A program made the translations under genes and the position numbers. This document shows positions 3,663 through 14,627 of a DNA stretch of 64,000 nt, piece after piece; the first letter of the stretch is position 1; each line of letters begins with the position of its first letter. The notes below the pieces were generated by a model that was not told the origin of the DNA, ran no database searches, and saw nothing but the letters and a program-made list of their open reading frames with translations. Origin of the DNA: Streptomyces albofaciens JCM 4342 (GTDB taxonomy: Bacteria; Actinomycetota; Actinomycetes; Streptomycetales; Streptomycetaceae); contig NZ_PDCM01000001.1 in NCBI RefSeq assembly GCF_008634025.1, positions 4,693,979 through 4,757,978 on the forward strand, in the 5' to 3' direction.

Positions 3663-4808
3663 CTGAGGTTGTCCGGGTGTTGTCGTAAGGGCTGACTTCT
3701 GGTGATCGTCGCAGTAGGCCGAAGTCATGAGGTATCCGCAAGGCGGTGGCCTGACGGCTGAGCGGCGGGCGTTTCGCGAGCGCATCCGGATGGATGCGGC
3801 CGCGATGTTCGCCGCCGGGCAGGCCAGTGATGTGATCGCGAAGCGGCTGCGGGTCAGCGTCCGCTCGGTACAGCGGTGGCGCCGGATCTGGCAGGACACG
3901 GGGCGGCAGGGCTTGCGCTCGCAAGGGCCGGCAGCCCGGCCAGCACTGAGCGAAGCCTTGTTCTCGGTGCTGGAGCAGGAACTGGCCAAGGGGCCGGTGG
4001 CGCATGGCTGGCCGGACCAGACCTGGACCCTGGCACGGATCCGCACGCTCATCGGACGCCGGTTCCACAAGAGCTTCACCCTCTCGGGTATCGCGAAGAT
4101 GCTGCGGCGGCACGGCTGGTCCCATCAGGTGCCGGCCCGGCGGGCGCTGGAGCGCGATGAGGAGGCGGTGGCCGGCTGGGTGAAGGACACGTGGCCCACG
4201 GTGGAAGCGGTGCGGCGGCGCTCGGGGCCTGGCTGTGCTTCGAGGATGAGGCCGGCTTCTCGGTGACGCCGCCCATCCGCCGCACCTGGGCCCAGCGCGG
4301 CCACACGCCGCTCATCCGGGTCCGGGGACGTTCCCAGCGCCGCTTTTCGATCGCCGCTTTGGCCTGCTACCGCCCCGGCCGACGCTCCCGCCTGATCTAT
4401 AGGCCCAAGCGGCACGGCAACGTCAAGGAGGCCAGGCGCCGCAGCTTCACCTGGAGCGATTACCGTGACCTGCTCATCGCAGCCCACCAGCAGCTGGGCG
4501 GCCCGATCGCCGTCGTCTGGGACAACCTGAACGTGCACAAGGACGCCCGACTGCGGGCTTTCATCGACAGCCGAGACTGGATCACCGTTCACTACCTGCC
4601 GCCCTACGCTCCCGACCTCAACCCCGTCGAAGGCATCTGGTCCCTTCTGCGTCGCAGATGCCAGGCCAATGCCGCCTTCACCGATCCCGACGACCTCATG
4701 CAGGCCCTCCGCCGCGGCCTGCGCCAGCTCCAGCACCGCAGCGACGTCATCGACAGCTGCCTCGCCGCAACAGGACTGCCTTTAACGACAACACCCGGAC
4801 AACCTCAG
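3663..4808 (+). mobile_element. IS630-family insertion sequence nested in the IS5-type element
   Basis: The element is bounded by 24-bp perfect inverted repeats beginning CTGAGGTTGTCCGGGTG and by TA dinucleotides at 3661-3662 and 4809-4810. TA duplication is diagnostic of IS630/Tc1-mariner transposition. Length is 1146 bp. The uninterrupted target is visible in the second IS5 copy as ...ACTCCACTAACCATC..., confirming insertion at a single TA. Confidence 0.93.
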
Positions 4809-4811
4809 TAG
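3727..4811 (+). CDS. IS630-family transposase in two overlapping frames (frameshift)
   Basis: The first frame (3727-4266) carries helix-turn-helix domains (SDVIAKRLRVSVRSVQRWRR). The second (phase -1, useful part from about 4200 to 4811) carries the DDE catalytic core: D in FEDEAGF, D in VWDNLNVHKD and E in NPVEGIWSLLRR. Neither frame alone is a full transposase. IS630 elements of actinomycetes are often expressed through programmed frameshifting, so this may be normal rather than damage; no obvious A-rich slippery heptamer is visible in the 4200-4260 overlap. The stop TAG is completed by the TA duplication plus a G of the host element. Confidence 0.85.
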
Positions 4812-5324
4812 TGGAGTAACGGTAGTTCTTGCTGGAGGCGGCCACGGCCCGGTCGCGGGTGGGGACCAGCGTGCCGTCCACGATGAGCACGGTGTTCTTG
4901 CGGAACCGCCGCCGGGGTTGGAGGGCGAGAGCCGGTCCGAGGTGGCCGACGATCCGGTCGGCCGCGGACTTGGAGATGCCGAAGAGCGGGGCGAGTTGGC
5001 GCAGGGTGAGGTTGGTGCGCCAGTACGCGGCCACCAGCAGCACCCGGTCCTCAAGCGGCAACGACCACGGCCGGCCCTTGCGGACCGGATCGGCGCCCTC
5101 GCGCCGCAACGCGGTGATCAGCTTGTTGAACTGCCGTGGGCTCAGCCCGGTGAACGGACCTATCCACGAGGGATCCGACGCCTTGATCACACCAGCCACG
5201 GCAAGATCGTCTCACCTCTGACCGGCAGTTACGGGACAGCCTCTAGGCGGCGGCTAGCATTCCAGCGGTAACGGTACGGCGTACAGCGTATGGCGTGACA
5301 ATGTGCGCCCGCGACGGGCCACCT

Positions 5325-6659
5325 TCAGACCCTGCGGCGGTGAAAACGGTCCGAGATGCGGTCGATCGTCCAAGCGGCGTGCAGCGTCGGCGTGCTGAGG
5401 ACGGACGGGGCGAACCGTGGCCGCGCACGCCACACGGAGGCGAGGTCTTCGTGCATCCGGTCGCCGGCGAGGCGGTCGGCGAGCAGGGTTCCGAGATACG
5501 GGGACTGGGCGAGGCCGTGGCCGTTGCAGCCGATGGCGTAGAAGACGTTCCGCGTCGCCTCCCCGGCGACCGGCAGCAGCGACGGTGTCATCGCGATCCA
5601 CCCGCCCCACGCCCGTTGCGGCGCGACGTCGCGGAGTGACGGGAACCGCTCGTGGAAGCCGCGGACGAGGTCCGATACGACCGCGTCGTCCGGCTCCCGG
5701 GCGCCCAGTGCTCCCGGCGCTGTGCGCAGCCGACGGGTTCCGAACATGATCGTGCCGCGTGGTGTGGGCCGGTAGTTCTCCAGGATCGTGTGCGGGGTGA
5801 TGATGCCGACGTGCCTCGTCCAGCCGGTCGCGGCCAGCCGTTCGGCGTCGACCGGTTCGGTTTCGACCAAGCTGGTCCAGACCGGCGTGACCATTCGCCT
5901 CGGGGCGATCGCGAGGTCCCGGGAGTAGGCGTTGGTGGCGAGCAGGACGCGCTCGGCGTGGACGCGGCCGCTGGTCGTGCTGACGACGGCTCCCGAAGCG
6001 TGGGGGTCGACCGCGCGCACGGCGGTCCGCTCGTACACGCGTACGTCCGATGCAAGAAGCGCCTCGCGCAGGCCGAGCGCGAACTTCCCGGGGTTCAGCA
6101 GTCCGCCGGCACGCTCGAAGACGCCGCCGAGAAACGTCTTCGGCAGGCCGAAGCCGCGGCCCTCGACGAACTCGACGTCCGCCCCCGCGCCTCGCAGGAT
6201 CTCGGCGTTCCGTTTGGTGCGCCGCAGCTGTCCGGGGGAGACGGCGGCGATGACGTTGCCCGTCGGCTCGTAGTCGCAGGCGATGGCGAGCCGTGCGATC
6301 AGCTCTTCGGTGAAACGGGCCGCCCTGTCCGCGTAGCGGACGAGCCCCGGCAGTCGGCGAGGGTACAGCGTGTTCAGGAGCTGCGGGTCGCCTGCCAGCG
6401 CGTTCGACAGGTAACCGGCGTTGCGCGAGCTGCCGCCCCATCCGCAGAAGCCGGACTCCAGCAGGACGACATCGGCGCCGCGGTCGGCCAGCCGGAGCGC
6501 CGCCGCCATGCCGGCGTAGCCGCCCCCGACCACGGCGATGTCGCACGTGAGCTCCCCTTCCAGCATCGGCGCGAAGTCGGTGGGCCGCTCGGCCCAGCCG
6601 CTGAACGCCGAATACGCCACGCCGGTGGAGCCGGCCACGCTCGCTGCAACGTCGTACAT
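5325..6659 (-). CDS. FAD-dependent oxidoreductase, DAO/glycine oxidase-like (amino-acid or amine oxidase)
   Basis: The 444-aa protein has a GGGYAG dinucleotide-binding motif near residues 45-50 in CDIAVVGGGYAGMAAALRLADRG, the DAO-family GWGGSSRNAGYLSN loop, a central LATNAYS segment and a C-terminal FAD-contact region FYAIGCNGHGLAQSPYLG. This matches gamma-glutamylputrescine-oxidase/DadA-like enzymes that oxidise primary or secondary amines to imines. I start it at MYDVAAS (6659), preceded by GGGAG. The operator-like site at 6720-6740 lies 61 bp upstream. Its imine product would be a natural RidA substrate. The exact substrate is unknown. Confidence 0.87.
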   Translation of the reverse strand: MYDVAASVAGSTGVAYSAFSGWAERPTDFAPMLEGELTCDIAVVGGGYAGMAAALRLADRGADVVLLESGFCGWGGSSRNAGYLSNALAGDPQLLNTLYPRRLPGLVRYADRAARFTEELIARLAIACDYEPTGNVIAAVSPGQLRRTKRNAEILRGAGADVEFVEGRGFGLPKTFLGGVFERAGGLLNPGKFALGLREALLASDVRVYERTAVRAVDPHASGAVVSTTSGRVHAERVLLATNAYSRDLAIAPRRMVTPVWTSLVETEPVDAERLAATGWTRHVGIITPHTILENYRPTPRGTIMFGTRRLRTAPGALGAREPDDAVVSDLVRGFHERFPSLRDVAPQRAWGGWIAMTPSLLPVAGEATRNVFYAIGCNGHGLAQSPYLGTLLADRLAGDRMHEDLASVWRARPRFAPSVLSTPTLHAAWTIDRISDRFHRRRV

Positions 6660-6719
6660 GTCGATCTTGGTCTCCCGTCCAGAGTGCTGAGGATGGCGGC
6701 ACCGTATCGAGTCGCGCGA

Positions 6720-6740
6720 ATTTACACAACAGGCGTTACG
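6720..6740. promoter_or_regulatory. Second copy of the TetR operator-like sequence
   Basis: The site reads TTTACACAACAGGCGTTACG and matches the reverse complement of 846-866 with one mismatch. It lies 61 bp upstream of the FAD oxidase start, a normal operator position. Confidence 0.6.
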
Positions 6741-7020
6741 GGAATGGTTGCCCGTGTGTTCGGGAGCGGATCGGGTCGTGGCATTGATCGGTGGCAGAGC
6801 GGTGGCGGATCGGGTGGTGGCATCGGGCGGCGGCGTCGAGGGTGGTGGAGTAGTCGGGGGCAGTACGCGCTCGCGAGTGCTCGCGATTTGCGCCTGGTTG
6901 ATGGTTGTGGCCCGCCGGCCACGGTCGGTGCGCCCGAGGTGGTAGGTGCGGGGTACGGTCCGCGCCGGACGGCGGTGCGAGGGCGAGCGGGCGGCCTGGT
7001 TCCTGTGCCGGCTGGTTGCC
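6741..7020. other. Intergenic, G-rich imperfect repeats
   Basis: Two copies of a GCGGATCGGGT(C/G)GTGGCAT sequence lie at about 6769-6831. Short open frames here are compositional and I do not call them. Confidence 0.5.
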
Positions 7021-7530
7021 ATGGGCCTCCGGCAGAGCCTGGTGGACGACGATCGGGCCGCGGAGTCGGTGCGGAACATCGTCTATGTGTCCAACTTCGC
7101 CGGGCTGCGCACAACGTTTCTGGACCTGTACTGCAAGGAAGGCTCCCACCCCTATATGGAGCTGGAACGCATGAGCAACGGCGTGCTGTCCCATTCCACG
7201 GTCAGCCGCTTCGTCAGCGGGGTGACCGGTCGGCCCAGCCGGCAGTTCGTCCTCGCTTCCGCCCGGGTGTGCGGTATGCGGGGCGTGGCCCCCAACGAGT
7301 GGGCCAGGCATGGAGCCGGGCGGAGGAATGCCGACTGGAAGACCCGCGCAGAGCTCTCTGCCGTAACGCCGAGTGGGACCGTCAGCGTCGAGCATCAGAG
7401 AATGGGAGCTGGGGCATGGATGGCCTTCAGGAGGTGCACGCGTCACTACCGGTGTCCGGCGGGAGCCGGAGTACTTCGCCAGAATCTGCATACCGGCCTG
7501 AAGGGCTCGGTTCGCCGATTCGGACGATAA
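7021..7530 (+). CDS. Putative helix-turn-helix DNA-binding protein
   Basis: A frame from ATG 7021 gives about 169 aa. The segment SNGVLSHSTVSRFVSGVTGRP...FVLASARVCG looks like the helix-turn-helix common in Streptomyces XRE-like proteins (HSTVSR recognition helix followed by a ...FVxAxVRACG helix). The rest is not recognisable and the C-terminal third looks like read-through of non-coding DNA. It could be a truncated regulator. It lies about 480 bp upstream of the P450 gene on the same strand; a regulatory link is only inferred from position. Confidence 0.4.
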   Translation: MGLRQSLVDDDRAAESVRNIVYVSNFAGLRTTFLDLYCKEGSHPYMELERMSNGVLSHSTVSRFVSGVTGRPSRQFVLASARVCGMRGVAPNEWARHGAGRRNADWKTRAELSAVTPSGTVSVEHQRMGAGAWMAFRRCTRHYRCPAGAGVLRQNLHTGLKGSVRRFGR

Positions 7531-8010
7531 GGCCGGCGGACCAGCGGATGCGGGAGGCCGCAGACGTTGGGTGCTGAGGCGGTGCTGAGGCGGGCGGCAC
7601 CTGGTCCGCTGGGTGCCGTCAGCCCGCGACAAGGGCCGAACCGGCGGCATTCAATCTGAATTCCTCACCCGGCCGTGAGGACCAGGCCCGTCACGCAAGC
7701 AGCTCGACAGACCCACTGCTCCGGTACTGAACTCGCCAACTGGACCGCTCCGGGAGCCATGCTCCTGGCCGTCGCAGGGCAGAGAGCCGCTCTCCGGGCT
7801 GGCGGTTCTCCGGACGGGCGGTGCAGGTCACGTCGGCGACGGGAGTTCGAGCGGTCGCGTCGGCGGGTGGTGGGGCCGAGTGTCCGGTGTGTTCACCTTT
7901 ACGAGTGGAGTGACGCCCTTGCGGCATTGGGGACGGTTGTCGCTGGGCAAACACCCGGCACGGGCGGCGGATTGTGTGCCCGGATGACGGCCCTGGGGGG
8001 AGGGCGTGCG
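7531..8010. other. Leader region upstream of the P450 gene
   Basis: An open frame continues upstream of the P450 to 7675 but has no P450 similarity and no good start. A small CTCACCCGGCCGTGAG hairpin lies near 7664-7679. The promoter of the P450-peptide unit probably lies here; I could not fix it. Confidence 0.4.
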
Positions 8011-9168
8011 GTGAGCGTGAGAGAAATGCGCCGATTCCGGCGTGATCCGCTTCAATACATCGAAGACTGCGCACGCCGGAGCCCGGTGGAGGTGTTCCGG
8101 CTCCCGTGGGGCGCCTGGTGCGTGAGGGACACCGATCTGGCGCTCACGGTGTTGCGCGACCCGGCCTTCCACAGCGGCATGTCCACCTTCTTCGGGGACA
8201 TGCTGCCTTCGCGAACCGCCCAGATCGCCCTCGGCCGCGCCGTCCGGGACCTGATGCGGGCGCACCTGCCCACCTGCCGTCAGCGAGTGGCCGAGGCCGC
8301 AGCCGGGCTCGGCCCGGTCAGCCAGTGGCCCGAAGCCGGGCCGCTGCTGGTGTACCGGTGTACGGCGGACGTGCTGCTGCACCCCGGTGTCCCACCGGCA
8401 CTACGGCGGCAGATGGCACAGGCCGTGTCGGCCGGGCTGACCGCCCGCCAGCCGTACAAGCGACAACGGGCACGGGCGGAACTGCTGCGCCCCAGACTTC
8501 TGGCCTCGATCACCGGACATGTCCGCAGCCGCCGGATGCACAGTCCCGCAGCGGGCGAGCCGCAGGACCTGCTGGACGCCGTGATCGGAGCCTGCCCCGA
8601 GAGGCTCACTGATCGGACCGTGGCAGGCCTTTACGTGCTGCTGTTCCAGTCGATCGTAGGCAACATCGGCTATGCGGTGGCGTGGTCGCTGCTGCTGGCC
8701 TGTCTCCACCACCCACCCGGCCCGCCATGGCCGTGGCCCGCCGAATGGCTGGTGCGCGAGGCCGCTCGCCACCGCCCGTTCGTCTGGATGGTCGGCCGAC
8801 GCGTCCCCCACCCCCTCGAATTCGGCGGCCTCCCGTTCTCAGCAGGCACGATCCTGTCGGTCAGTCCCTATCTCCTGCACCACGACTCGCACCGTTGGGA
8901 CCGACCCGAGACGTTCCGCCCCGAACGCTGGAACGAACCAGGCGGGCAAGGCCCCTACCTCCCCTTCAGCGCCGGCCCTTTCACCTGCGCCGGCGCGGCC
9001 GTCGCGCACAGCCTGATCACCGAGGCGGTCACCGCCCTGTCACAGGACGCCCGCCTGACCGTCAACGGCGGCGATGCCCGGCCCCTGGTGTCCGGCTCTG
9101 TCCTGCCCCGCCCCTTCACCCTGCGCCGCGCCCTCAAGGCCCCCGCCCGGCTCGCGTTGATGAGATGA
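8011..9168 (+). CDS. Cytochrome P450
   Basis: The 385-aa protein shows the ExxR motif (E250, R253 in REAARHRPF), the PERF-like FRPERW segment and the heme loop FSAGPFTCAG (319-328, ligand C326). The I-helix region LLFQSIVGNIGYAVAWSLLL lacks the usual (A/G)Gx(D/E)T proton-relay residues. This is a departure seen in some specialised P450s and suggests unusual oxygen activation or substrate. I choose GTG 8011 because GGGGGGAGGG ends 6 bp before it; ATG 7984 is the alternative. A 23-codon peptide gene follows 15 bp downstream and a terminator closes the pair. No ferredoxin gene is adjacent. Confidence 0.92.
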   Translation: MSVREMRRFRRDPLQYIEDCARRSPVEVFRLPWGAWCVRDTDLALTVLRDPAFHSGMSTFFGDMLPSRTAQIALGRAVRDLMRAHLPTCRQRVAEAAAGLGPVSQWPEAGPLLVYRCTADVLLHPGVPPALRRQMAQAVSAGLTARQPYKRQRARAELLRPRLLASITGHVRSRRMHSPAAGEPQDLLDAVIGACPERLTDRTVAGLYVLLFQSIVGNIGYAVAWSLLLACLHHPPGPPWPWPAEWLVREAARHRPFVWMVGRRVPHPLEFGGLPFSAGTILSVSPYLLHHDSHRWDRPETFRPERWNEPGGQGPYLPFSAGPFTCAGAAVAHSLITEAVTALSQDARLTVNGGDARPLVSGSVLPRPFTLRRALKAPARLALMR

Positions 9169-9183
9169 GGGGAGGTGAATGAC

Positions 9184-9255
9184 ATGATCGCTGCTATCCG
9201 ACGCATCCTCTGGAACAAGCCCGCCAGTTACTGGGAGCCGAATGTCTGGCTCTGA
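9184..9255 (+). CDS. Short aromatic-rich peptide, candidate P450-modified RiPP precursor
   Basis: The ATG at 9184 follows GGGGAGGTGA with ideal spacing, one of the strongest ribosome binding sites in the window. It encodes 23 residues: MIAAIRRILW, then N, then KPASYWEPNVWL and stop. Three Trp and one Tyr lie in the last 14 residues. Position directly after a P450, aromatic clustering at the C-terminus and a following terminator match the gene pattern of P450-crosslinked peptides (atropopeptides, biarylitides, cittilins), although known precursors often precede the P450. No protease or exporter gene is adjacent. Alternatively the ORF is translated only to couple termination. Function is inferred. 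Confidence 0.6.
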   Translation: MIAAIRRILWNKPASYWEPNVWL

Positions 9256-9272
9256 CAGTCCCGGTTTGCCCT

Positions 9273-9311
9273 GGTGGCCCGCGCGCCATGGCCAATGGCG
9301 CGCGGGCCACC
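9273..9311 (+). terminator. Strong hairpin terminator after P450-peptide unit
   Basis: A perfect 17-bp stem, GGTGGCCCGCGCGCCAT and its complement, surrounds a 5-nt loop, 17 bp after the peptide stop. No T-run follows, as is usual in Streptomyces. It bounds the P450-peptide transcription unit. Confidence 0.85.
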
Positions 9312-9635
9312 TGAACGTATCGACCCTGCTCATCGTCCCCGTCGGCGCATGGCGCATCGGCGCATTCGCCGATGCCCGTACGGGCTGAGGGGCCCAGAAC
9401 GGCAGCAGTGGACACCTCGCACCTCGCGCCGTTCGCTGGACGAGACTGACTGGGTTTTTTGAGAGGCGTTGAAGGTGTTTCCGAATCTCCGCCGGGATGC
9501 CGTTACATCACTTGTGTTGATTGTTGTTGTCTGAGCCTTCGAAGTTAAGTCGGACCTTGTCGGCATTCCTCCGGCTGGTATGTAAGAAGAAGACCGAACT
9601 ATGCGGGAAAGACGCTGTCGAAGGAGGGATGGGAC
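9312..9635. other. Intergenic region upstream of hsp20
   Basis: This is a lower-GC stretch with a T6 run near 9455 and TTGTGTTGATTGTTGTTGTC near 9510, which may hold the Hsp20 promoter. I did not find CIRCE or HAIR heat-shock operators. Confidence 0.5.
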
Positions 9636-10058
9636 ATGCTGATGCGTACGGATCCCTTCCGTGAGCTCGACCGGCTCGTCGAGCGTGTCCGGGGCACGGC
9701 CGCGCATCCGGCCGGCATGCCGCTGGACGCCTGGCGTGAGGGAGACGGCTTCTTCGTGGAGCTGGACCTGCCGGGTGTGGACCCGGAGTCCATCGATCTC
9801 GATGTCGAGCGGAACGTCCTGACCGTGAAGGCCGAACGCAAGCCGGCGTACGGCGAGAACACCGAGACGGTGATCACCGAGCGGCCCGTGGGGATGTTCA
9901 GCCGGCAGCTGTTCCTCGGCGAGACCCTCGACACCCAGAAGATCGAAGCCTCCTATGAGGCGGGCGTGCTGAAGCTACGCGTCCCGGTCACCGAGCAGGC
10001 CAAGCCGCGCAAGATCGCCATCAGCGGCGGCGGTGACCGCAAGGAACTGGGCAGCTGA
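9636..10058 (+). CDS. Hsp20/alpha-crystallin family small heat-shock protein
   Basis: The 140-aa protein begins [17 protein letters not shown] and has an alpha-crystallin domain at about residues 28-125, including [20 protein letters not shown], the LTVKAER strand, [12 protein letters not shown] and the GVLKLRVPV (GxLxLxxP-like) motif. A short lysine-containing tail follows. These are ATP-independent cytoplasmic holdases. GGAGGGATGGGAC precedes the start. It is monocistronic. Confidence 0.95.
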
Positions 10059-10482
10059 CGGCGGCAAGCCACGCCTGCCGGGCCCCGGGCGGGTCATGCC
10101 CCGGGGCCCTGACGCCGTCCAGGACGCCCATCGGCCGCCTGCGCTGTCGTGAGCACGCCGGCACGGCCCGCGTCCCACCCGCCATCCCGGCTCCATCGCC
10201 TACGAGGAGAGCTTGCACACCTACGGAGAGAGCTCGCACGCATACGAGGAGAGCCTGCACGCCCGTGGACAGGAGCTGTATCGCCCGCTGCGTCGAGCCG
10301 CAAGGCGCCGACCGGCATACCGAGGAGATGCGCGAGCGCTTCACGTCCCCGGCCGACCGCGAGCGGTCTTCCGTATGTCCGTATGTCCTTCCGGCTCCCG
10401 ATGCCCGGGGGCGTTGCCGGGGCCGGGCCGTCCGCCGTGCCCCGATCGGCGCACGAGGCGCGGCGGACCGGATCGCGGTGGC
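10059..10482. other. Intergenic with 21-bp triplet repeat
   Basis: Three imperfect 21-bp units of the type TACGAGGAGAGCTTGCACAC occupy 10200-10262. In the plus frame they encode a 7-residue repeat (HTYGESS, HAYEESL). No start or homology supports a gene, so this may be the tail of a lost repeat protein. Confidence 0.5.
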
Positions 10483-11493
10483 TCACATCTCGAAGACGAT
10501 ACGTGCCTTGATCTGCCCGTTCAGGACTTCGGCGATGGACTCGTTGACGGTCTCCAGCGGCCGGGTCTCATAGATCACCTTGGTGCGTCCTGCGGCGTGG
10601 AGCCGGAAGACCTCGGCCAGGTCCTGGCGGGTGCCGACGATGGAGCCGATGACGGACGTGCCGTTGAGGACGGTGTCGAAGATCGGCACGCTGATGGTGC
10701 CCCCGGCGGGCAGGGCGACCATGACCAGCTTGCCGCCGCGCCGCAGTCCGCCGTAGACGGAGGCGAACGCCTGCTCGTTCACGGCCAGTGCGATCGCGGC
10801 GTGCGCGCCGCCGTGCCGCTTGAGCACCTCGGCCGGGTCCTCCTTGCGGGCGTTGATGAGGATGTCCGCACCGAGTTCCCGGGCGAGTTCGAGTTTGTCG
10901 TCGGTGATGTCGATCGCGGCGACGGTGGCCCCGGCGATTTTCGCGTACTGCACGGCCAGGTGGCCGAGTCCGCCGACGCCGGAGATGGCCACCAGCTGGG
11001 CCGGACGGACACCGGCGACCTTCAGCGCCTTGTACGTGGTGACGCCGGCACACGTCAGTGGCGCGGCGTCACGCGGGTCGATGCCGTCGGGGACCACAGC
11101 GGCGAAGCCGGCCGGTGCGAGCATCTTCTCGGCGTAACCGCCGTCCACGCTGTAGCCGGTGTTCTGCTGCTGTTCGCACAGGGTCTCCCAGCCGGAGAGG
11201 CAGTGCTCGCAGCGCCCGCAGGCCCAGCCCAGCCAGGGCACGGCCACCCGTTGCCCGATCTCCAGGTGGGTCACTCCGTCACCGAGCGCCTCGACAGTGC
11301 CGACGCCCTCGTGGCCGGGGACGAACGGCGGGGTCGGCTTGACCGGCCAGTCGCCGTGCGCAGCGTGGATATCGGTGTGGCACAGTCCGGACGCCTCCAC
11401 CCGGATGCGGACCTGGCCGGGGCCGGGCTGCGGGTCCGGGCGCTCCTCGATCACCAGCGGCTCGCCGAAGGACCGGACGACTGCTGCCTTCAT
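10483..11493 (-). CDS. adhP: Zinc-dependent alcohol dehydrogenase, AdhP type
   Basis: The 336-aa medium-chain dehydrogenase carries catalytic zinc ligands in GLCHTDIH and GHEGVG, the structural-zinc loop CGRCEHCLSGWETLC and the Rossmann motif GVGGLGHLAVQYA, all in the order and spacing of bacterial AdhP ethanol dehydrogenases. It interconverts primary alcohols and aldehydes with NAD(H). The ATG at 11493 follows GAGGAG; the GTG one codon earlier is possible. The downstream gene is convergent hsp20. The gene looks intact and well conserved. Confidence 0.93.
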   Translation of the reverse strand: MKAAVVRSFGEPLVIEERPDPQPGPGQVRIRVEASGLCHTDIHAAHGDWPVKPTPPFVPGHEGVGTVEALGDGVTHLEIGQRVAVPWLGWACGRCEHCLSGWETLCEQQQNTGYSVDGGYAEKMLAPAGFAAVVPDGIDPRDAAPLTCAGVTTYKALKVAGVRPAQLVAISGVGGLGHLAVQYAKIAGATVAAIDITDDKLELARELGADILINARKEDPAEVLKRHGGAHAAIALAVNEQAFASVYGGLRRGGKLVMVALPAGGTISVPIFDTVLNGTSVIGSIVGTRQDLAEVFRLHAAGRTKVIYETRPLETVNESIAEVLNGQIKARIVFEM

Positions 11494-11984
11494 CACTGGC
11501 TCCTCAAAACTGTTCGGTGCGGTGTGGGTTCAGCGTCGGCCGCGTCCCGGTGTCACGACAGGTACTGGAAGTCTTCACCGGTTGGGCCGGTCGGCCCTGA
11601 GTCACAGGGAACCGGCCTACGGATTCGGGCGGAGCGCTTCTGGCGGGACACGTCGGCGAGGCGCTACGGACCCGACTTACACCCCTGAGGACCGGTTGCA
11701 GGGTCAGCCACCGTCGGTTGGGTTGTGGTCGGGCGGAGTCCTTGTCAACGATCTCCTGATCCCGGCAGTCGTGATCATCCTGGCCGTGCGGTCCCGGCGC
11801 CTGGCTGCCGCACCCCGACCGGCCGGCTCGCTCGCCGCCTGAGACCGCGGGAGCTGTTCTCGCGATGGCGGCTGCGGCTCCTGCCCCTGCGGTCGACACC
11901 GTCGACACCGCCGACGCCCCGCCGGCTTCGGTGCGGGCCCATCGCGGCGGGTGCTGGCCGGCGGCGGCCAGATGAGGAGACGGT
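11494..11984. other. Degenerate region between adhP and CAR remnant
   Basis: There is no recognisable coding sequence. It includes a GTCGACACC-type dinucleotide-rich stretch near 11892-11910. Confidence 0.5.
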
Positions 11985-12775
11985 AGCCGGAAAAGAGCCG
12001 GTCGGACGTGACCAGCAGTTCGCCCCTGGGGTGCGATGAGTCGCTTTGGAAGTATCCCAGCTCGGGCACGTCCGCCAGTTTGTGGTCGGTCACCGGCAGG
12101 CTCACCACCCGGCCATCGAGCGAGACGATGCCGGCTTCCGTCGACCCGTAACCGTTGAGCAGCCTGACGTGCAGGCACTTCTCGACGCATGCCGTCGTCT
12201 CCGCGCTCAGCGGGGCCGAGGCGCTGACGGCCCACAGGAGTCGGCCGCCCAGCACCGTCTCCCGCAGTTCCTCCTGTACGCGCTCCGCGTGCTCGGCCGC
12301 ATCTCCTGCCGTCCCGGCATCGTTCCGGCGGGCCAACTCGCTCCGGTAGCGCTGGAAGAGCATGTCGCAGATGCGGGGCACCATGACGAACTCGGTGGGG
12401 CGGAACAGGGGGATGTCCTCGAAGAGCGTCGACAGGTCGCCCGATGCCGCGAAGCAGGCGAGGCCTCCCTTGGCGAGCCTGCCGAACAGCACCCCCCGCC
12501 CCATCATGTGGCTCAGCGGCAGGTAGTTGAGCACGATGGACGGCCGCACCCCTTGGCCGGGCACGAAGTCGACCCAGAACTGCCGGACAAGACGCTCGGT
12601 GTACATGGCGCCCTTGGGGGTGCCCGTACTTCCCGAGGTGTAGACCAGCGAGCCGAGCGAGTCGGCCGTCGTCCCCTCGGGGCTCCGGGGGACCGGTGGC
12701 AGAGCCCGGCCTCGCACGATCACCGACGCCAGTGTGTCCAGGGTGACACCTCGGCCCTGCGCCGCGTTCGTGCGG
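11985..12775 (-). pseudogene. Carboxylic acid reductase (CAR) adenylation-domain remnant
   Basis: The minus strand encodes LGSLVYTSGSTGTPKGAM (AMP-binding P-loop), LNYLPLSHMMGRGVL, DLSTLFEDIPLFRPTEFVMV, VSASAPLSAE and LLNGYGSTEAGIV. This series matches the adenylation domain of CAR/FadD9 enzymes, which reduce carboxylic acids to aldehydes. It begins abruptly at about codon 250 of the family and loses similarity after RLFSGYR (about 11985). Roughly 800 further residues (carrier and reductase domains) are absent. It is a fragment without function. Confidence 0.82.
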
Positions 12776-13073
12776 GACCGTCACTCGCCTGGGGAACGTG
12801 CGGCATGCACCGGCGGATCGTGTGAGCGAAGTCGGCTGGGGCCAGGCCCCCCTCCTTGACGCCTTGGAGACCATCCAGCCCTTGGCGTGCACCGGTTCGA
12901 AGGGGACCGTCCGGGGCTGGCTCACCGGGTCACTGACAAAGGGCCGGTATACCCGGTGTCGGGAGAGTCGAATTCATGGAACGCGCCGAGTGGGTGCACG
13001 GCATCGTCCCGGCGGTGTCGTCCGCTCCCGGATGATGTCATCCGCTCCTGGGAGCTTCGGCACGTCGCCGGTG
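12776..13073. other. No gene seen
   Basis: Short frames only. An upstream continuation of the CAR frame meets a stop almost at once. Confidence 0.5.
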
Positions 13074-13664
13074 TCAGCCGGTTTGCAGACCGTCGAGAAG
13101 AACGGTCAGCACCAAGTGGTGGCCGTGCGCGGGATCAGGGTCGAGTCCCAGCACGCATCCCTGTACCGCTGGGGCGCCGGTCAGCCGCAGCACTTCCTGC
13201 CAGGCCAGGTCCCGGCGTAGACGTCCCTGGTCCTGAGCGCGTTCGATGACCTTCCGGGTGAGGTCGAGGAGCTCGTGGCGCTGCTGGGCGACAGCGGGCC
13301 CGCCGTGCTGGTCCAGGGAGCCGGACAGTCCCGCGTTCTGAGCGGTGCGCAGGGCCAGGCCGGTGAACAGCAACGAGAAGCCCTCCCAGGCGTCATCGCA
13401 GTCCAGAGCCTGGTGTGCGGTGTCGATCAGTTCGGTGAGGATGTCGCTCAGCACCGCCGCCATGAGCTGGTCGCGTTCGGGGTAGCGCCGGTAGACGGTG
13501 CCCACACCGACGCCGGCCTCCCGAGCGATCTCGTGGTAGCTCACGTCCAGCCCGGCAGAGGCGACGGCGCGACGCGCGGCCGCGAGAACCCGCGCGGCAT
13601 TGCGCTGGGCGTCGGCGCGCACGGGCGTCGTCCCCTGGGTCGTCGCAGACCGCTCCGTGTTCAT
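13074..13664 (-). CDS. TetR family transcriptional regulator
   Basis: The 196-aa protein has an N-terminal helix-turn-helix (LDVSYHEIAREAGVGVGTVYRRYPERDQLM) typical of TetR proteins that repress a divergent oxidoreductase gene. Start ATG 13664 (MNTERS); an alternative start is one codon upstream. The intergenic region towards the SDR at 13770 holds two inverted repeats of the same GGAC half-site. The controlled SDR next door is decayed, but the second SDR at 14629 may still be under this promoter. Confidence 0.9.
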   Translation of the reverse strand: MNTERSATTQGTTPVRADAQRNAARVLAAARRAVASAGLDVSYHEIAREAGVGVGTVYRRYPERDQLMAAVLSDILTELIDTAHQALDCDDAWEGFSLLFTGLALRTAQNAGLSGSLDQHGGPAVAQQRHELLDLTRKVIERAQDQGRLRRDLAWQEVLRLTGAPAVQGCVLGLDPDPAHGHHLVLTVLLDGLQTG

Positions 13665-13683
13665 CACCCCATCGTATCCATAA

Positions 13684-13742
13684 GTGGACAGCTTCTGTCC
13701 GCCTCCTCTACTCTCACGGAAACGGACAAGATTGGTCCGTTT
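13684..13742. promoter_or_regulatory. Two inverted-repeat operators for the TetR at 13074-13664
   Basis: GGACAG-CTT-CTGTCC at about 13686-13700 and AAACGGAC-AAGATTG-GTCCGTTT at 13720-13742 (8-bp perfect arms) lie between the divergent genes. Both are built on the half-site (C)GGAC. Binding by the neighbouring TetR is inferred from position and symmetry. Confidence 0.6.
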
Positions 13743-13769
13743 GTTTGGCTCGTGCGAGAGGTGCGCAGC

Positions 13770-14627
13770 ATGGGGTCCCGTGTATGGCTGGTCACCGGCG
13801 CGTCCGGCGCGTCCGGCGGGTTGGGCGCGTCCGGCGGGTTGGGTCAGGCCCTGGTCAGTGAGGGTCTGAGTTCAGGTGAGCGGGTGATCGCGGTCACGCG
13901 CGACGACGAGCCGCTGCTACCGCTGACCGCCGCCTTCCCGGGTGTCTGCGCACCGTGAGCGTGGACATCGCCGACGCCAGTACGCCGCGTCCGGTACTGG
14001 ATGACGCGATCACCGGGTTCGGCCGCCCCGACGTCGTCGTCAACCGCGCTGGCGGGCCCCTTCGAGGAACTGGACGACACGGAACTGCGCGCCCAGTTCG
14101 CAGGAACTTCTGCGCCGCCGCCAACGTCCTGCGCGCCGCTCTGCCCCACCTGCGCGCGGCAAAAGCGGGCCGTGTGCTGCAGATTAGCTCGCCGGCAGGG
14201 CAGATCGGTACCCCGGGGATGAGCGCCTGCACGGCCGGCAGGCACGCCCTCGAAGGTCTGAGCGTCTCACTGGCCGCCGAACTCACCCCGCTGAGCATCC
14301 GGACGACGATCGTGGAGCCCGGAGCAGCCCGCACCGGCTTCCGCGCCAACTGGGCGAGCCGGCTGCCCGGCAGCCCCGCCCTCCCCGATTACCTCCCGTG
14401 CACGAAGCACTGGCGCGCTCCGCCGACGCCGCGGCAAGGCAGGGCGGCGACCCGCCCGTACGGCCCAGGCCCTTATCGCCCTCGCCGACATGCCGAGCCC
14501 CCGCTGTGCCTTCCCCTTCGGCAGCGCCGCCCTCGCCGGCATCGAGAACGCCCGCAGCGACCAACGCAAAGAGCTGCGCCGATTCGCGCCCCTGAGCGCT
14601 TCCACCGACCACACAAAGGCAATCTGA
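13770..14627 (+). pseudogene. Short-chain dehydrogenase/reductase, multiply frameshifted
   Basis: Pieces in three frames reconstruct a classical SDR: VWLVTGASG...GLGQALVSEG, TVSVDIAD, GFGRPDVVV, LAGPFEELDDTELRAQF, NFCAAANVLRAALPHL, GRVLQISSPAGQIGTPGMSA, HALEGLSVSLAAEL, IVEPGAARTGF and a C-terminal ALIALADMPSP tail ending at 14627. An 18-bp duplication (GCGTCCGGCGGGTTGGGC) has expanded the cofactor loop. At least four single-base frameshifts are present. The catalytic YxxxK is now CTAGR (Tyr to Cys, Lys to Arg). Loss of the catalytic residues shows this is real decay, not only sequencing error. Confidence 0.85.

What the first reader, a model, noticed from the sequence alone, without database searches (positions are those of the whole stretch)
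8011..9311. P450 followed by a 23-codon Trp/Tyr-rich peptide: candidate minimal P450-RiPP system
Seen: a complete P450 with an atypical I-helix (no AGxxT), then 15 bp later an ORF with one of the best ribosome binding sites of the window, encoding MIAAIRRILW-N-KPASYWEPNVWL, then a 17-bp-stem terminator. Known: P450s install Trp/Tyr crosslinks on short peptides in atropopeptides, biarylitides and cittilins, often with no other modifying gene. Inference: this peptide is the substrate. The gene order (P450 first) and the core sequence do not match a family I can name. The unit is intact amid decayed neighbours, which suggests selection.
Basis: partly seen in the sequence, partly recalled or inferred. 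Interest (0 to 1): 0.85.

Follow-up and report, generated by a model that had tools for sequence, protein, structure and literature searches.

The report
Two-gene P450 and cross-linkable peptide pair
A soil bacterium carries a two-gene unit, an oxidising enzyme followed by a tiny Trp-rich peptide, that recurs as a pair in dozens of related bacteria and most likely makes a small ring-shaped peptide whose product is not yet known.

Summary
The window (a Streptomyces genome) has an intact P450 (8011-9168), 15 nt, a 23-codon ORF (9184-9255) behind GGGGAGGTGA, and a 17-bp hairpin. Of 50 named loci with a related P450 (49-86% identity), 49 carry a homologous short ORF just downstream; the exception is L069. 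A blind search of 382 Streptomyces genomes with the peptide profile gave ten strong hits, all beside this P450. No other gene recurs in more than 11 of 51 loci. Leaders are alike (MxAxxRRIfxNKPA). One core Trp is present in 55 of 55 peptides and a second Trp/Tyr in 54, at i+2 or, as here, i+5. The spacing class follows the P450 tree (2 changes; 200 shuffles gave at least 13). Best reading: a minimal P450-RiPP family, related to but distinct from hyalucidin A (30-36% P450 identity, same P450-first order), and not atropopeptide or biarylitide. A cross-link is inferred, not shown. NCBIfam has no model for the precursor. Key P450-RiPP mining papers could not be read, so prior listing of the family cannot be excluded.

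The parts
8011..9168 (+). cytochrome P450, 385 aa, putative peptide-modifying enzyme
   Evidence: Pfam PF00067; 133 proteins at E<=1e-20 among 7997 scored candidates, best others 84-87% identical; heme Cys and ExxR intact, I-helix acid/alcohol pair absent
9169..9178 (+). Shine-Dalgarno GGGGAGGTGA directly after the P450 stop
   Evidence: sequence; a permissive SD pattern matched near all 55 homologous peptide starts, AAGGAGGTGA in 27
9184..9255 (+). 23-codon precursor peptide MIAAIRRILWNKPASYWEPNVWL; leader about 1-14, core about SYWEPNVWL with conserved W17 and W22
   Evidence: homologous ORF in 49 of 50 named loci; blind genome search; dN below dS in 19 of 21 pairs and unconserved DNA after the stop
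9273..9311 (+). 17-bp hairpin, possible transcription end of the two-gene unit (no T-run)
   Evidence: -45.9 kcal/mol for 9256-9325, z -5.57

Best explanation
A minimal two-gene RiPP locus. The precursor gene follows the P450 gene and is translated from a near-perfect Shine-Dalgarno placed at the P450 stop. The basic N-terminal leader (MxAxxRRIfxNKPA, a predicted helix) is bound by the P450, and the C-terminal core is oxidised at the invariant Trp (W17) and, most likely, joined to the second aromatic residue (W22 here) to give a macrocycle. A protease encoded elsewhere then frees the core. Shown: the pair, its co-inheritance, the conservation pattern, and the match between core type and P450 clade. 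Inferred: one transcript, substrate relationship, cross-link, cleavage. Not known: bond type and activity.
For: 49 of 50 named loci have the peptide at 26 bits or more, against at most 4.8 bits in 340 decoy ORFs from upstream DNA (the profile was built from 20 of these peptides). Less biased check: 10 strong hits (34-53 bits) in 382 Streptomyces genomes, each beside the P450 found; 4 weak hits (20-24 bits) lie in longer frames of 109-536 aa. Outside the P450 span no ORF group recurs in more than 11 of 51 loci (the 25 largest groups printed). Invariant core Trp 55 of 55, second W/Y 54 of 55. WxW versus other spacing changes twice on the P450 tree of 53 labelled rows, shuffles at least 13. Peptide codons differ at 5-14 of 69 nt among seven close loci while the next 69 nt differ at 28-53; dN<dS in 19 of 21 non-independent pairs. 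The sister P450 clade (30-36% identity) sits directly upstream of precursors of the hyalucidin A family. The missing I-helix acid/alcohol pair is shared with that clade.
Against: L069 has a 59% identical P450 but a Trp-less peptide; L005 has the Trp but no second Trp/Tyr. In L042 the P450 match holds 3 stops, and in L067 and L017 only the C-terminal part of the P450 matched, though the peptide is present. L051 is WxW but groups with the wide-spacing clade. AlphaFold models of two P450-peptide fusions give a leader helix of middling confidence (pLDDT about 81 and 60) and a core below 50, so they show no docking. Mass loss, product and expression were not testable. The locus is sparse: 11 of 392 Streptomyces genomes.
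Confidence: 0.82

Rival explanations
1. The P450 acts on the peptide, but by hydroxylation, dehydrogenation, nitration or another change of the Trp rather than a cross-link.
For: Only one Trp is strictly invariant and L005 has no second Trp/Tyr. One biarylitide-type P450 clade has switched to Tyr nitration (PMC13417212, introduction read).
Against: A second Trp/Tyr is kept in 54 of 55 peptides, at spacings that follow the P450 clade.
Confidence: 0.12
2. The peptide is a partner or regulator of the P450 (small stabilising subunit, translation or stability factor), not its substrate.
For: The N-terminal part is the more constant part and forms a predicted helix.
Against: The variable, aromatic C-terminus with spacing classes that track the enzyme is what a substrate core looks like; the precursors of the sister clade belong to a named RiPP family.
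Confidence: 0.05
3. Chance ORF after a P450 of ordinary secondary metabolism.
For: Short ORFs are common in GC-rich DNA (one search lists 136 ORFs of 20 aa or more overlapping 4000-14000).
Against: Conservation in Streptomyces, Embleya, Kitasatospora, Nocardia, Saccharothrix, Amycolatopsis and others; blind search; control counts.
Confidence: 0.01

Closest known systems
Hyalucidin A family RiPP (NCBIfam NF053510; Yin et al. 2026, title seen only in a reference list)
   Same: Related P450 (30-36% identity, I-helix also without the acid/alcohol pair) directly upstream of a short aromatic precursor with an AGGAGGTGA-type SD
   Different: The precursor is another family (no NF053510 hit for the window peptide; theirs ends in FWYLYHHI or close to it), and a second P450 match follows in 8 of 8 loci found with that model; none recurs here
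Atropopeptides (tryptorubin, varsorubin, scabrirubin)
   Same: Two-gene P450 + short precursor, Trp-rich C-terminal core
   Different: KSLK leader motif; precursor before P450 in the sva locus; P450 barely alignable (SvaB: 38% over 50 residues). S. varsoviensis carries both kinds
Biarylitides
   Same: Minimal P450-RiPP pair
   Different: Pentapeptide precursor with a two-residue leader (passages of PMC13417212); here precursors of about 16-28 aa
Cyptides roseovertin, rubrin, lapparbin
   Same: P450-made Trp/Tyr/His cross-links on short ribosomal peptides
   Different: Reported links span i+2 or i+3 (PMC11002830 passages); here the pair is i+5. Precursor sequences of that study not seen
Aminopyruvatide P450 ApyO (NF050147)
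   Same: Best NCBIfam match of the P450, in its C-terminal part
   Different: 64 bits against a cut-off of 525; no partner gene recurs beside this P450

Membership tests
P450-modified RiPPs / cyptides (broad kind) | P450 gene next to a short precursor gene with conserved aromatic core residues | tested here: met
P450-modified RiPPs / cyptides (broad kind) | P450-installed aromatic cross-link in the product | not testable with these tools
   needs expression and MS/NMR
Hyalucidin A family | precursor matches NF053510 | tested here: not met
   window peptide and five other family peptides: 0 NCBIfam hits
Hyalucidin A family | second P450 downstream (tandem P450 catalysis) | tested here: not met
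   no second P450 recurs in 51 loci with flanks of up to 8 kb, shorter in some; second P450 match in 8 of 8 loci found with NF053510, 7 of them over its cut-off
Hyalucidin A family | homologous P450 immediately upstream of the precursor | tested here: met
   30-36% identity, P450 match ends 46-163 nt before the precursor
Atropopeptides | KSLK-type leader motif | tested here: not met
   none of the listed motifs in the window peptide; definition from PMC11450843 passages
Atropopeptides | class-defining P450 | tested here: not met
   SvaB very distant, 38% over 50 residues
Atropopeptides | Trp at position 2 of the core | tested here: inconclusive
   cleavage site unknown; W17 is invariant
Biarylitides | pentapeptide precursor with aromatics at 3 and 5 | tested here: not met
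   23-aa precursor; definition from PMC13417212 passages
Cittilins | YxYY-type core with CitB-like P450 | not tested
   no CitB reference fetched; motif recalled
Aminopyruvatide | ApyO equivalog score | tested here: not met
   64 of 525 bits

The most novel reading that the evidence does not exclude
This is an unnamed, P450-first RiPP family in which one enzyme lineage has split into clades making rings of different size: WxW (i,i+2) in one, and mostly Trp to Trp/Tyr over five or more residues (i,i+5 to i+7) in the other, larger than the P450-made links described in the passages read. The window pair would make a W17-W22 bridged peptide.
Probability: 0.4. Interest if true: 0.75.

Novelty: new variant of a known kind. 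Interest (0 to 1): 0.62.

Why it matters
It adds a compact, well-bounded enzyme-substrate family with natural variation in aromatic spacing, so the rule by which such P450s choose cross-link distance can be read from sequence and tested by swapping cores. P450s of this kind are sought as peptide macrocyclisation catalysts. The precursors are easily missed: NCBIfam gave no hit for the six family peptides tried.

Tried and rejected
Atropopeptide, biarylitide and hyalucidin membership were tested and rejected. Rfam gave no hit at gathering scores in 7000-11000. Fold searches listed only P450s of other functions; the closest chain by sequence, 9ulw (full length, E 1.4e-26), was named in no held paper and was not among the fold-search rows shown. 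Fusion models did not place the core with confidence. A text search for NKPARRWYWY, RRWYWY, WYWY, NKPAR, RRIFTNKP and NKPASYW matched 170 papers; none of the 30 listed is on the subject. Studies that may already list the family (Nam 2023, He 2023, Hu 2023, Liu 2024) were seen only in reviews and reference lists; six other articles looked up by id, the MpoB paper among them, were not held. The first peptide alignment used wrong coordinates for two loci and was dropped. The first downstream scan read the minus-strand loci in the wrong orientation; named loci and reverse complements replaced them. The script ended with an error at L019, so what follows that P450 was not seen. My regex scan missed L040, L054 and L061; they were read by hand and by profile.

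Full report
Observation. The P450 (8011-9168), gap, Shine-Dalgarno, 23-codon ORF (9184-9255) and 17-bp hairpin (9273-9311) are all as described. The P450 keeps the heme cysteine loop, ExxR and PERW, but where eight other P450s of the same genome show AGHETT-like I-helix centres it reads SIVGNI. In the 64 kb no other ORF on either strand combines GGAGG, an ATG/GTG start, 15-35 codons and an aromatic C-terminus; first-order random sequence gave a mean of 0.075 per strand.

Relatives. The protein search scored 7997 candidates and found 133 proteins at E<=1e-20 (120 shown). Of 392 Streptomyces genomes, 17 had a P450 match at E<=1e-30: 11 (own included) at over 50% identity, one of them partial (G087), and 6 at 35-41%. 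Of 394 genomes of the class, 4 (own included, all of the same genus) matched at E<=1e-40. A pattern scan of named genomes gave 50 loci in Streptomyces, Embleya, Kitasatospora, Streptosporangium, Nocardia, Saccharothrix, Amycolatopsis, Actinosynnema and others.

The peptide is conserved with the enzyme. With a profile built from 20 of the peptides, 49 of the 50 named loci score at least 26 bits within 300 nt of the P450 match end; L069 does not (0.8 bits). The window and five further loci also match (20 bits or more), giving 55 peptides; 340 upstream decoy ORFs score at most 4.8. In L042 the P450 match holds 3 stops, and in L067 and L017 only a C-terminal part matched. A separate profile of 14 peptides run blind over 382 Streptomyces genomes gave ten hits of 34-53 bits, each beside a P450, and four of 20-24 bits within longer frames. 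The eleventh family genome (G224, divergent peptide in L005) is not in that answer's list of matches; whether it was among the 382 is not known. Among 3149 ORFs of 100 aa or more in 51 loci (flanks up to 8 kb, shorter in some), the groups that recur in more than 11 loci are the P450 and frames overlapping it; the next, in 11 loci, are mostly Nocardia, and a short-chain-dehydrogenase-like group (my reading of the sequence) is scattered over 9 (25 largest groups printed).

Selection. Among seven close loci, peptide codons differ at 5-14 of 69 nt, the 69 nt after the stop at 28-53 (ungapped); dN is below dS in 19 of 21 pairs, which are not independent, and above it for window-L020 and L023-L024. 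A permissive SD pattern matched near all 55 peptide starts, AAGGAGGTGA for 27.

Anatomy. The leader is MxAxxRRIfxNKPA (14 peptides). The core Trp is present in 55 of 55; the next Trp (or Tyr where there is no further Trp) lies at +2 in 28, +5 in 20, +3, +4, +6 or +7 in 6, and is missing in 1. In the window this is W17 and W22. Among the seven close loci W10 is R in four and Y16 is F or L in two, so these are not part of the conserved pattern. On the P450 tree the WxW class and the rest (53 rows) need two changes; 200 label shuffles needed 13 or more, mean 17.9. L051 (WxW) sits on a long branch within the wide-spacing clade.

Kinship. The nearest known RiPP family is hyalucidin A. The peptide after the L012 P450 (36% identical to the window's) matches NF053510 at 41.3 bits, cut-off 35; those of L013-L016 and L018 look alike. 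With that model, 8 of 293 genomes of the order gave loci (7 over the cut-off), and 8 of 8 have a P450 match (30-35% identity) ending 46-163 nt before the peptide and a second P450 match starting 0.6-1.1 kb after it. The hyalucidin A paper is known here by title only. The atropopeptide reference SvaA/SvaB of S. varsoviensis, located through PMC11450843 section 12, matches NF038372 and is far from this family; the same assembly carries a member of this family (L023).

Mechanism. The data fit leader-guided oxidation of the core by the P450, most likely a Trp-Trp (Trp-Tyr in Nocardia) cross-link. AlphaFold fusions of P450 and peptide, with 12 peptide-bearing rows each, gave a leader helix (pLDDT about 81 for the window, 60 for L057) and a core under 50, so they neither show nor exclude docking. 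Bond type, cleavage and activity remain open.

Novelty. NCBIfam (June 2026) gave no hit for the window peptide and the five other family peptides tried, though it has models for tryptorubin and hyalucidin A. Reported P450-RiPP links in the passages read span i+1 to i+3. The large mining studies, described in PMC12299652 as yielding 11 categories and 19 BGCs (passages), were not readable, so the family may be listed there. Papers: PMC11450843 abstract, passages and sections 4, 6 and 12 (part 1 of 2); PMC13417212 section 5 and passages; PMC12352619, PMC12299652, PMC13383641, PMC13192836 and PMC11002830 passages only.

Noticed in passing
L101-L108; L012-L016, L018: Hyalucidin-family loci: P450, then precursor, then a second P450 (second P450 checked in L101-L108), in several Streptomyces; one hit just under the cut-off in another genus (L108). 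Precursor end FWYLYHHI nearly fixed.
   Followed up: partly
L011 (G183), after the P450: A P450 relative (38-41% identity) with its own downstream ORF MRSMRKFIRRLQDVTAKQAWRIW, seen once; may be a further P450-first family.
   Followed up: no
L017 / L112 (G087): Only the C-terminal part of the P450 matches (residues 275-380) although the peptide MTSTMRRIFTNKPARRWYWY is intact.
   Followed up: no
L069, just after 9122: Nocardia transvalensis P450 with the usual Shine-Dalgarno and ATGATCAAG start, but the peptide then diverges and has no Trp.
   Followed up: partly
L042 8001-9118: P450 match with 3 stops in the frame read, peptide intact; broken gene or assembly error not decided.
   Followed up: no
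window 3727-4811 (+) and 4747-5199 (-): IS630-type transposase in two overlapping frames (HTH_33, DDE_3; the IS630 label is recalled) next to a short HTH_Tnp_4 transposase ORF.
   Followed up: partly
window 5325-7079 (-) and 6946-7530 (+): FAD-dependent oxidoreductase (DAO) frame with about 180 residues before the domain, overlapping an opposite-strand frame with a weak HTH_31 match; true start uncertain.
   Followed up: no
window 11704-12723 (-): AMP-binding enzyme matching only profile positions 155-383 of 384, so without its N-terminal part in this frame.
   Followed up: no
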